In this document: piece by piece, positions 57,718 through 60,515 of the stretch
How the letters are laid out: every line of letters begins with the position of its first letter
Position numbering within the stretch: the first letter of the stretch is position 1
Assembly: GCA_019115485.1 (NCBI GenBank)
Contig: DXDM01000005.1
Span: forward strand, 1 to 64,000
DNA: 64,000 bases
Direction of reading: 5' to 3'
Origin: Candidatus Barnesiella excrementavium
GTDB taxonomy: Bacteria > Bacteroidota > Bacteroidia > Bacteroidales > Barnesiellaceae
Position numbers and translations under genes: made by a program
The notes under the pieces: generated by a model
Told to the model about the DNA's origin: nothing
Database searches by the model: none
The model's input: the letters and a program-made list of their open reading frames with translations, nothing else

Positions 57718-59055
57718 CTAAAAATCGAATCGCAGACCGGCTTGCAGATTGATGTTGAAGGGTTTCTCCTTGCGAATGGTCGATACGTGTGAGCCGTCGT
57801 CAAAGTAGTAGGCGATGCCCGGCTCGGCATAGAGATTGACGTGGGGGGCCAGTTTGAGGGTGATACCGGCGGCGGCCGATACCGACCATTGCAGCGGATC
57901 GACACGCAGGGTCTCGTTCTCGGTAAGCGATGGGTGGTCGTTGACCTCGTAGTGGGCCGACAGTTTCCCTGAGAGGCATTTCTCGACCATGCCGCCCCCG
58001 GTCAGGTAGAGGTCGAAATAGCGTTTGCGCAGGAATTTCCAGCGAAGTTTCAAGGGTATTCCCAGGTAGTGCAACTGCTGTTTCTGGGTGTAATAGGTGG
58101 CATCGCCGGCGGTGAGGTCGGAGGCGAGGTAGGTGTAGACCAAGCCCGTTTCGAGAGCCAAAGCCGGTGAGAGTGATTTCTCTACCGTAATGCCCACCGA
58201 TACGGGAAAGTGGTGTTTCACGTCGGTCGTGGGTTGGGCGTTAAGGTTTTGCAGCATCACGTGCTGGTAGGGAGTGGTGCTTTTGCCCGAGGTGGTTGAG
58301 GCATCTTCGCCCGAAGGAATGCTGGCCATCTCGATGAGTGAGTAGGGGGCAAGATTCCCGAACCCGCTGCGGTTGTCGGCGGCGGTAATCAGGCTGTTGC
58401 CCAGCGATAGGCTCACGGTCCAGCCTTCGTTCTTGCGGGTGCGTGTGCGTGTGGGGTGACCGGCCGTCGGTACACTCTTGCCGGAGCGGGGATATAGTGT
58501 GTAATTCGGTGAGGTTGTCGCCGATGGTGACAGCTGTTGCGAGGCGGTCTCTGTCTGGGAAACGGCTGTCGGTCGGTCGGTTGTTTGGGTGGAGTCGGGG
58601 GCAATTGTTTGTGCCTTAGCCTCCGGTATGCTCTCCTCTGTCGGTATGGGCTCGGAGGTAGCGGAGAGGGCGATACGCGGGCCGACAGTTCGAGCCGTGC
58701 GGCCGTTTACCGGCGATTGGGCTTGGGAATAAAGCGGTGTTGTAGGGTTCGATGAGGAGAGCTCGTTGGCAAGAGCGGGTCGGTCGACTTCCGGTCGGGC
58801 GGGTTGGACCGCTTGCAGGGGAGTCTCGTGCGAGGGGACTCCCGTCGAGAGATATTGCAACCCCACGAAGGTGCCTACCAGCACGGCAATGCAGGCTGCG
58901 GCAGCCCACAGCACGGCCCGGCGTCCCCAGGCGATACGGCGGGGTGCAATCTCGTCGGTCAGCCGATTCCACACCTCTTCCGGTGGCGTGACCGCATGAC
59001 CGTCGAGCTGTTCTTTCCAGCTGTCTCTCCAATCCTTATCTCTATTCGTCTCCAT
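57718..59055 (-). CDS. Dma-like dual-membrane-spanning anti-sigma factor: cytoplasmic N-terminus, TM helix, disordered linker, C-terminal outer-membrane beta-barrel
   Basis: 445 aa. About 46-aa soluble N-terminus (DSWKEQLDGHAVTPPEEVWNRLTDEI); TM AVLWAAAACIAVLVGTFVGLQYL; about 140-aa S/T/P/Q-rich linker; C-terminal barrel-type region (SVGITVEKSLSPALALETGLVYTYLAS...LHYLGIPLKLRWKFL...AAGITLKLAPHVNLYAEPGIAYYF...LQAGLRFDF). Overlaps the preceding ECF sigma gene by 14 nt. Confidence 0.8.
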   Translation of the reverse strand: METNRDKDWRDSWKEQLDGHAVTPPEEVWNRLTDEIAPRRIAWGRRAVLWAAAACIAVLVGTFVGLQYLSTGVPSHETPLQAVQPARPEVDRPALANELSSSNPTTPLYSQAQSPVNGRTARTVGPRIALSATSEPIPTEESIPEAKAQTIAPDSTQTTDRPTAVSQTETASQQLSPSATTSPNYTLYPRSGKSVPTAGHPTRTRTRKNEGWTVSLSLGNSLITAADNRSGFGNLAPYSLIEMASIPSGEDASTTSGKSTTPYQHVMLQNLNAQPTTDVKHHFPVSVGITVEKSLSPALALETGLVYTYLASDLTAGDATYYTQKQQLHYLGIPLKLRWKFLRKRYFDLYLTGGGMVEKCLSGKLSAHYEVNDHPSLTENETLRVDPLQWSVSAAAGITLKLAPHVNLYAEPGIAYYFDDGSHVSTIRKEKPFNINLQAGLRFDF

Positions 59056-59599
59056 GTTTCGACAGATACGTTTTGATTCGATTCATCAGTAATGTGCGAG
59101 CCCGGTATAGTTGTGACGAGGAACTCTTCTCGTTGATGTGCAGCAGTTGGGCAATCTCCCTATGCGACTTGTTCTCGAAGGTGAACAAGTTGAATACGGT
59201 GCGGTAGCCGTCGGGCAGCTCGGCAATGAAGCGGAGCAGCGTGTCGGGCGAGAGGTGTTGCACAAGAGAGTCGTCGCACGATTCGGGGTCGGCCAGGTCG
59301 GGCGCTTCGTCGATGTCGACATCGGCATGCTGAGCCTGTTTCCGGGCCTCTTCCAGAGCTGTATTCACCATGATGCGGCTCAACCAGGCTTTCAAAGAGC
59401 CCTCACCCCGGTAGTCGAACTTGTCGAGCGAGGTGAATGCTTTGAGGAATCCGTCGTGAAGCAGGTCTTTGGCCGTTTCGCGATTGCCGGCGTAGCGGAT
59501 ACAGAGGGCAAACATCTCGCCGGAGTACCGTCGGTAGAGTTCGGCTTGTGCCGAGGGCTCCTTTCGCTTGCAACACGCTACCAACTCTGCTTCGTTCAT
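59042..59599 (-). CDS. ECF-type RNA polymerase sigma factor (Das-like partner of the Dma-like protein)
   Basis: YRRYSGEMFALCIRYAGNRETAKDLLHDGFLKAFTSLDKFDYRGEGSLKAWLSRIMVNTALEEARK and ELPDGYRTVFNLFTFENKSHREIAQLLHINEKSSSSQLYRARTLLMNRI. Confidence 0.95.
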   Translation of the reverse strand: MNEAELVACCKRKEPSAQAELYRRYSGEMFALCIRYAGNRETAKDLLHDGFLKAFTSLDKFDYRGEGSLKAWLSRIMVNTALEEARKQAQHADVDIDEAPDLADPESCDDSLVQHLSPDTLLRFIAELPDGYRTVFNLFTFENKSHREIAQLLHINEKSSSSQLYRARTLLMNRIKTYLSKHGDE

Positions 59600-59637
59600 T
59601 GTGAGAATCCTGTTATATAATAAATGCGACGATGTAA

Positions 59638-59703
59638 AAATACTGCACGGGCGGCGATAGAAAAATTGTTTTTCACTCTTTAACAGTATGCGATGCAGTA
59701 TTT
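59638..59703. promoter_or_regulatory. Inverted repeat in divergent sigma/NigD intergenic region
   Basis: AAATACTGCA (59638-59647) and TGCAGTATTT (59694-59703), perfect 10-bp IR, each copy facing one of the divergent genes. Confidence 0.45.
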
Positions 59704-59759
59704 GTGACTCACTTCCGTTTATTTCGTAAAAAGTGGATAAAAACTAAAAACAAAGCGAT

Positions 59760-60515
59760 ATGAAAATGAAGCATCTTTTCGGAGCCGGACTGCTGGGTGT
59801 ACTCCTGGCATGCGGGCTGTCGTCGTGTGGCGATGACAAAAACGAATATTATGTGCCCTATTCCTATGCCGTGGGCGATATGGTGGTGGCCGAAGGGCAC
59901 GATCCGTATATTCAGTTAGATGACAAGACCACGCTGTTCCCTTCGAATGGGACACGCCTGCCGGGCTACCTGACCAAGGACGGGCAGCGGGTAATTATCA
60001 ACTTCACCTACCTCGATGAGCAGCGCGAAGGGTATGACTACTATGTTCTCATCAACGACATCGATTCGGTGTTGGTAAAAAATGTAATTCCCATTACCCC
60101 CGAAACAACCGACAGCATAGGCAACGACCCCATCAACATTCTCAGCATGTGGACGAGCGACAAATATCTGACCGTGCAATTCGAGGTGCGCGGGCTGGGT
60201 CGTGAGAAACACATGATGAATCTGGTGCGCGACTATTCGCTGGCTTCCAATCCCGATTCCGAAGGGTATCTGCATCTGAACTTGCGTCACAACCGCATGA
60301 ACGATCCCGATATCGACCACTATCTGTGGGGGGTGGCTTCGTTCCGGTTGAGCGATATCAGAACCGAGTACCCCGACTTGAAGGGTTTGAAAATCGAAGT
60401 GCGTACCCTGAGCGATACCCGTGATTATACCTGCGATTTTGACGAGAGTGAAACTGACGGCCGCGGGAGTGCATCGCCGACGAGCGAGAGAAGCATGGCT
60501 TCGTATGTGAAATAG
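59760..60515 (+). CDS. NigD-like lipoprotein
   Basis: Lipobox CGLSSCGDDKNEYY; YSYAVGDMVVAEGHDPYIQLDDKTTLFPSN; QRVIINFTYLDEQREGYDYYVLINDIDSVLVKNV. Confidence 0.85.
   Translation: MKMKHLFGAGLLGVLLACGLSSCGDDKNEYYVPYSYAVGDMVVAEGHDPYIQLDDKTTLFPSNGTRLPGYLTKDGQRVIINFTYLDEQREGYDYYVLINDIDSVLVKNVIPITPETTDSIGNDPINILSMWTSDKYLTVQFEVRGLGREKHMMNLVRDYSLASNPDSEGYLHLNLRHNRMNDPDIDHYLWGVASFRLSDIRTEYPDLKGLKIEVRTLSDTRDYTCDFDESETDGRGSASPTSERSMASYVK

What the first reader, a model, noticed from the sequence alone, without database searches (positions are those of the whole stretch)
57718..60515. Dma/Das/NigD-type trans-envelope signalling module: sigma factor coupled to an anti-sigma that appears to span both membranes
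Seen: the 445-aa product of 57718..59055 has no N-terminal signal peptide. It starts with a short soluble segment (METNRDKDWRDSWKEQLDGHAVTPPEEVWNRLTDEI), then one hydrophobic helix (about residues 47-69), then about 140 residues of S/T/P/Q-rich low-complexity linker, then a beta-strand-rich region ending in a terminal aromatic (GLRFDF) as in outer-membrane barrels. Its start overlaps the stop of an ECF sigma gene by 14 nt. A NigD-like lipoprotein gene is transcribed divergently from that sigma gene. Established: in Bacteroides thetaiotaomicron a family of dual-membrane-spanning anti-sigma factors (Dma1, cognate sigma Das1) controls outer-membrane vesiculation through NigD1. The match in domain order and gene neighbourhood is close. 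Inference: this locus is an orthologous or paralogous module and the divergent nigD is its regulon output. How one polypeptide can be anchored in the inner membrane and folded by BAM in the outer membrane remains mechanistically unusual.
Basis: partly seen in the sequence, partly recalled or inferred. Interest (0 to 1): 0.85.

Follow-up and report, generated by a model that had tools for sequence, protein, structure and literature searches.

The report
Barnesiella Dma1/Reo two-membrane stress switch
A gut bacterium (Barnesiella) carries the same stress switch already studied in Bacteroides, an anti-sigma protein predicted to be rooted in both membranes that restrains a sigma factor; matching promoter sequences on both sides strongly suggest that this sigma factor drives the neighbouring surface-lipoprotein gene nigD as well as its own operon.

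Summary
57718..59055(-) encodes a short N-terminus, one TM helix, a ~140-aa disordered tether and a C-terminal barrel that AlphaFold2/Foldseek read as an 8-stranded OmpA-like OM barrel. It overlaps the ECF sigma gene by 14 nt, and a NigD1/NigD2-family lipoprotein gene diverges from the sigma gene. Among 79 parsed related loci, 66 have nigD divergent from sigma-anti-sigma. New here is promoter evidence. The 160-bp intergenic region carries two back-to-back copies of one ECF-like promoter, TGCAGTATTT-N11/12-C(A/G)TTTA, one facing nigD and one facing das. In nine Barnesiella-genus genomes the strict motif occurs only there: twice in eight, once in the ninth. A looser form lies upstream of other NigD and lipoprotein genes in Bacteroides and Phocaeicola, matching the reported EcfO regulon, which contains three nigDs. 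So nigD as regulon output is well supported by sequence. Sigma binding, localisation, trigger and vesiculation remain untested. Known kind, new member; the promoter and its two-transcript regulon in Barnesiella are the added value.

The parts
59042..59599 (-). das1/ecfO-like ECF sigma factor, 185 aa
   Evidence: Sigma70_r2 8e-15, r4_2 8e-14; 52.7% identical to the B. fragilis and B. faecis orthologs; tree places it with Barnesiellaceae inside the divergent-nigD clade
57718..59055 (-). dma1/reo-like dual-membrane anti-sigma factor, 445 aa
   Evidence: 53-member alignment A1
58927..59055 (-). predicted cytoplasmic sigma-binding segment, residues 1-43, two short helices; W9, P25, W29 nearly invariant
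   Evidence: sigma binding itself inferred
58852..58926 (-). inner-membrane helix, residues 44-68, N-in by the positive-inside rule
58423..58851 (-). disordered S/T/P/Q-rich periplasmic tether, residues 69-211
   Evidence: pLDDT<50; sequence not conserved (about 12% identity) but length is (136 +/- 9)
57721..58422 (-). predicted 8-stranded OmpA-like outer-membrane barrel, residues 212-445; last outer loop L4 (418-432, FDDGSHVSTIRKEKP) is the most conserved element
59622..59646 (-). predicted Das promoter of das-dma: GCAGTATTTTTACATCGTCGCATTT, first base 47 nt upstream of the das ATG
59695..59720 (+). predicted Das promoter of nigD: GCAGTATTTGTGACTCACTTCCGTTT, first base 65 nt upstream of the nigD ATG
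59679..59685 (+). TTTAACA element next to the nigD-side box, conserved in 62 of 66 intergenic regions; role unknown
59760..60515 (+). nigD1-like surface lipoprotein gene (lipobox LSSC, acidic CGDDKNE after the Cys), predicted output
   Evidence: NF051862 209.9 bits; NigD_N and NigD_C

Best explanation
The locus is the Barnesiella ortholog of Das1-Dma1-NigD1 / EcfO-Reo. Dma holds the ECF sigma Das at the inner membrane by its cytoplasmic N-terminus while a roughly 140-residue tether joins the inner-membrane helix to an 8-stranded barrel in the outer membrane. Damage to the outer membrane, or failure to assemble the barrel, makes Dma release or lose Das. Free Das then fires two back-to-back promoters of the same type: one for das-dma (self-amplification plus new inhibitor) and one for nigD, a surface lipoprotein that in relatives is linked to vesiculation and toxin protection. 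Supported by sequence here: domain layout, orthology, twin promoters, and a strict-motif regulon of only these two transcripts in Barnesiella. Inferred: sigma binding, localisation to both membranes, the trigger and the physiological output.
For: Layout and fold. The divergent nigD / das-dma arrangement is kept in 66 of 79 parsed loci across Barnesiella, Coprobacter, Phocaeicola and Bacteroides, including B. fragilis and B. faecis. The divergent nigD of B. faecis scores 209.7 bits and the window's 209.9 against the family model named after BT4005/BT4719. Sigma tree: window das groups with Barnesiellaceae next to the Bacteroides clade, and the genome's own paralog falls outside. Twin promoters: spacing from G of GCA to C of CRTTT is 20-21 nt in 63 of 66 das-side sites and 52 of 66 nigD-side sites; zero matches in 100 shuffles of the window; in nine Barnesiella-genus genomes the strict motif occurs only in this pair; in 78 genomes of other families of the order only one match, inside coding sequence. 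In Bacteroides/Phocaeicola a looser form also precedes other NigD-family genes (L116, L120, L135, L137) and lipoproteins, as expected from the EcfO regulon with three nigDs. In P. vulgatus the pair is induced by BcpT and by bacteroidetocin A, a BamA inhibitor, and disrupting the anti-sigma gene turns the regulon on.
Against: No interaction, localisation or expression data for Barnesiella. The N-terminus matches no named anti-sigma family above threshold (best is a sub-threshold NCBIfam match, 16.5 bits). AF2 cannot say that one molecule occupies both membranes at once. Promoter assignment is by conservation, without mapped start sites. The looser pattern has some control matches in the larger Bacteroides genomes (13 against 36).
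Confidence: 0.82

Rival explanations
1. Dma is made as one chain but is cut in the periplasm: the N-terminal piece acts as an ordinary inner-membrane anti-sigma and the barrel is a free OMP, so no intact molecule spans both membranes in the resting state (compare the self-cleaving FecR-like anti-sigmas FoxR and FpvR; own knowledge).
For: The long, unconserved, disordered tether would be easy to cleave; a hydrophobic helix followed by small residues could be attacked by a signal peptidase.
Against: Tether length is kept (136 +/- 9 aa) although its sequence is not, which fits a spacing constraint; published models treat Dma and Reo as spanning from cytoplasm to surface.
Confidence: 0.15
2. The twin GCAGTA boxes are operator sites of a separate DNA-binding regulator, and nigD is not a direct Das target.
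For: No start site is mapped; a further conserved element (TTTAACA) sits only on the nigD side, so another regulator may act there.
Against: Each GCAGTA box has a CRTTT box at a fixed 20-21 nt in the direction of each gene, ending close to the start codon, as expected of a -35/-10 pair; the motif recurs in front of nigD paralogs in the group where nigD transcription is reported to require the sigma factor.
Confidence: 0.08
3. The trigger is a ligand bound by the conserved outer loop L4, not envelope damage or failed barrel assembly.
For: L4 is the most conserved element of the protein (0.80 against 0.33-0.37 for L1-L3); the Dma2 authors propose glycan sensing for Dma2.
Against: Known inducers in P. 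vulgatus are envelope toxins, including a BamA inhibitor. L4 may be conserved for barrel folding, and part of it was a selection pattern for the 80 loci, although it is also 90% or more conserved in alignment A1, which was not selected that way.
Confidence: 0.25
4. The 445-aa protein is simply a porin or PorT-family OMP, as databases label it.
For: Source names are 'porin family protein' and 'PorT family protein'.
Against: No N-terminal signal peptide, an internal TM at 44-68, operon overlap with a sigma gene, family-wide conservation of the layout.
Confidence: 0.03

Closest known systems
Das1-Dma1-NigD1, Bacteroides thetaiotaomicron (PNAS 2024, doi 10.1073/pnas.2321910121, not readable here; described in PMC13088901)
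   Same: ECF sigma next to an anti-sigma with sigma-binding N-terminus, TM helix, disordered tether and C-terminal barrel; NigD1/NigD2-family lipoprotein as output
   Different: Species only, as far as tested; vesiculation untested in Barnesiella; in Barnesiella the strict promoter motif is confined to this one locus
EcfO-Reo, B. fragilis (Ndamukong 2013, not readable here) and P. vulgatus (PMC9308784, PMC13114119)
   Same: Same locus type; anti-sigma reported to reach from cytoplasm to surface; nigD genes need the sigma for transcription
   Different: P. vulgatus regulon includes three nigDs and an LPS-glycan glycosyltransferase; Barnesiella shows only one linked nigD with the strict promoter
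Dma2-Das2 (BT_1558/BT_1559, PMC13088901)
   Same: Domain plan of the anti-sigma, adjacent ECF21 sigma
   Different: Operon with a DUF4943 protein, confined to Bt and close kin, does not raise NigD1
FecI-FecR type cell-surface signalling
   Same: Signal passes from the outer membrane to an ECF sigma through an inner-membrane anti-sigma
   Different: There the outer-membrane part is a separate TonB-dependent transporter; here it is fused to the anti-sigma

Membership tests
Dma1/Reo dual-membrane anti-sigma | Single inner-membrane helix after a short N-terminal segment, no cleavable signal peptide at the start | tested here: met
   TM 44-68, preceded by about 4 K/R
Dma1/Reo dual-membrane anti-sigma | Long disordered tether | tested here: met
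   Residues 70-208 pLDDT<50; family length 136 +/- 9
Dma1/Reo dual-membrane anti-sigma | C-terminal outer-membrane beta-barrel | tested here: met
   By prediction: PF13568, 8-stranded model pTM 0.74, OmpA nearest
Dma1/Reo dual-membrane anti-sigma | Adjacent cognate ECF sigma of group ECF21 | tested here: inconclusive
   ECF sigma adjacent and overlapping and 52.7% identical to the B. fragilis/B. faecis counterparts; no ECF-group classifier was available
Dma1/Reo dual-membrane anti-sigma | N-terminus binds and inhibits the sigma | not testable with these tools
   Needs two-hybrid or pull-down
Dma1/Reo dual-membrane anti-sigma | nigD-family gene in the sigma regulon | tested here: met
   By promoter conservation: twin divergent promoters; not shown by transcription
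Dma1/Reo dual-membrane anti-sigma | Deletion raises vesicle production | not testable with these tools
   Needs a mutant
NigD1/NigD2 lipoprotein family (NF051862) | Score over the curated cut-off of 60 bits | tested here: met
   209.9 bits
Dma2 module | DUF4943 protein gene in the operon | tested here: not met
   The next gene on the strand is another ECF sigma (57058-57567), followed by an anti-sigma-like ORF, DUF6108 and an OMP
Dma3 | Sigma domain fused at the N-terminus | tested here: not met
   Only about 43 residues precede the TM; the sigma is a separate gene

The most novel reading that the evidence does not exclude
In Barnesiella the module is a closed two-transcript circuit (nigD plus das-dma), and Dma works as its own sentinel client of the outer-membrane assembly machinery: if its barrel cannot be assembled, or its nearly invariant outer loop L4 is disturbed, Das is freed. 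NigD would then be the sole direct effector, making this the simplest natural setting in which to learn what NigD does.
Probability: 0.3. Interest if true: 0.65.

Novelty: new member of a known kind. Interest (0 to 1): 0.42.

Why it matters
NigD lipoproteins are among the most highly expressed genes of P. vulgatus in the mouse gut (PMC13114119), yet their function is unknown. A promoter sequence that marks direct targets of this sigma, and a genus where the strict-motif regulon appears to be only nigD plus the switch itself, make it practical to ask what NigD does and what the two-membrane anti-sigma senses. The conserved outer loop gives a concrete place to mutate.

Tried and rejected
Chance match of domain order: rejected by family-wide conservation. 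The genome's other das-dma pair (G000:C57:16255-17493, L002) as the true Dma1 ortholog: rejected, because it is followed by a NigD-like lipoprotein below the family cut-off (30 bits), lies outside in the sigma tree, and has a related but different upstream motif. A wider strict-motif regulon in this genome: the five other loose matches all lie inside coding genes; a variant pattern gave none (that pattern missed even the known pair, so it says little). Housekeeping promoter as the whole explanation: a TAnnTTTG match overlaps the das-side box in 51 of 66 loci but never the nigD side, and the window's own das-side box lacks it. Sequence search against solved structures found no relative of Dma; NigD has solved relatives. 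The PNAS Dma1 paper and the 2013 EcfO paper were not in the library, so it could not be checked whether they already describe this promoter.

Full report
What was checked. The genome is a Barnesiella: nearest proteins include one from Barnesiella viscericola, 86% identical, annotated there as 'porin family protein', and the window sigma groups with Barnesiella.

Anatomy of Dma. Pfam finds an OMP beta-barrel in residues 274-408. AlphaFold2 on a 53-member alignment gives two short helices, a helix 44-68, no structure at 70-208, and a beta region 212-444. The barrel alone models at pTM 0.74, and nearly all the top Foldseek matches are outer-membrane barrels, OmpA best. I read eight membrane strands with short periplasmic turns (295-298, 344-346, 402-405) and outer loops between; this strand count is my reading of the DSSP string, not a separate computation. 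Across 81 family members the pre-TM stretch (50 +/- 2), tether (136 +/- 9) and barrel (226 +/- 9) are all length-conserved, while tether identity to the window averages about 12% and barrel identity about 43%. Charges around the helix put the N-terminus in the cytoplasm. Length conservation without sequence conservation fits a spacer across the periplasm.

Neighbourhood and orthology. A scan of public genomes returned 80 named loci. Of 79 that could be parsed, 66 have a NigD gene divergent from das, 5 have it co-directional upstream, and 8 show none (one of these is at a contig end). Intergenic length is mostly 140-200 bp. In a maximum-likelihood tree of the sigma factors the window joins Barnesiella, Coprobacter and then Bacteroides; the genome's own second das-dma pair is outside, on a long branch whose exact place is unsure. 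The divergent NigD of B. faecis, a close relative of B. thetaiotaomicron (own knowledge), scores 209.7 bits against the NigD1/NigD2 model and the window's 209.9. B. thetaiotaomicron itself was not among the fetched loci, so identity with its Dma1 locus is inferred through B. faecis, the NigD model and the published gene descriptions.

Promoters. The intergenic sequences carry one box pair toward each gene: (A/G)TGCAGTATTT then C(A/G)TTT(A). The distance from the G of GCA to the C of CRTTT is 20-21 nt in 63 of 66 das-side sites and 52 of 66 nigD-side sites; the spacing was used to choose among alternative pairings at a site, so these counts lean somewhat in its favour. Other checks do not share that choice. 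The window pattern has no match in 100 shuffles. In this genome a loose pattern has seven matches and none for the reversed control; two are this pair and five lie inside genes. The strict pattern occurs exactly twice in eight of nine Barnesiella-genus genomes and once in the ninth, with no control matches; where there are two they lie about 73 bp apart, as in the das-nigD pair. In 78 genomes of other families of the order it occurs once, in coding sequence. In eight Bacteroidaceae and Coprobacter genomes a looser pattern gave 36 matches against 13 for the control. Of those inspected, besides the das and divergent nigD promoters, it precedes NigD-family genes in P. massiliensis, B. faecis, B. 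ihuae and B. fragilis and several lipoprotein genes. This agrees with the reported dependence of three nigD genes on EcfO in P. vulgatus.

Mechanism. Published work on relatives: disrupting the anti-sigma gene switches on the regulon and protects against toxins; BcpT and bacteroidetocin A, the latter an inhibitor of BamA, induce it; in B. thetaiotaomicron loss of Dma1 raises vesicle output by way of nigD1. Combining this with the anatomy, I propose that disturbed assembly or integrity of the barrel frees Das, which then drives nigD and its own operon. What Das drives rests on promoter evidence here plus experiments in relatives; what frees it is inference. Loop L4 (FDDGSHVSTIRKEKP) is the most conserved element of the protein. 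It should face outward if the C-terminal strand ends on the periplasmic side, as in known OM barrels (own knowledge), and is a candidate sensor or a folding determinant. Part of this motif was a search pattern for the 80 loci, so its conservation there is partly selected; in alignment A1, not chosen that way, T426, I427, R428, E430 and N434 are still at least 90% conserved and K429 and P432 invariant.

Known or new. The kind is known twice over, as EcfO-Reo and as Das1-Dma1. I could not read the two founding papers, so I cannot say whether the promoter has been described before.

Noticed in passing
55213-57567 (-): Immediately downstream lies a second ECF module: PG0214-type sigma (146.9 bits, cut-off 130), a small anti-sigma-like ORF, a DUF6108 protein and an OMP. 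It is kept in five of six Barnesiella loci; in L012 the sigma, anti-sigma-like ORF and DUF6108 were not found while the OMP remains.
   Followed up: partly
L002:916-3510 (G000:C57): A paralogous das-dma pair followed co-directionally by a NigD-like lipoprotein below the family cut-off; its upstream sequence ATGCAGCAAA...CATCTA resembles but differs from the window's promoter.
   Followed up: partly
59679-59685: TTTAACA stands just upstream of the nigD-side GCAGTA box in 62 of 66 loci, never on the das side, and was not seen at the other predicted sites; possibly a second regulator.
   Followed up: partly
das-side promoters of L014-L086: A housekeeping-like TAnnTTTG match overlaps the das-side ECF box in 51 of 66 loci and the nigD side in none, which would give the switch basal expression and nigD none; the window's das-side box lacks it.
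   Followed up: partly
L004:1474-2136 (G000:C33): A further NigD1/NigD2-family gene (109 bits) overlaps the end of an ABC-transporter ATPase-like gene, away from any das-dma pair and without the promoter motif in front.
   Followed up: partly
57760-57804 (Dma residues 418-432): The last outer loop is more conserved than any strand, unusual for an outer-membrane barrel, where outer loops normally vary most.
   Followed up: partly
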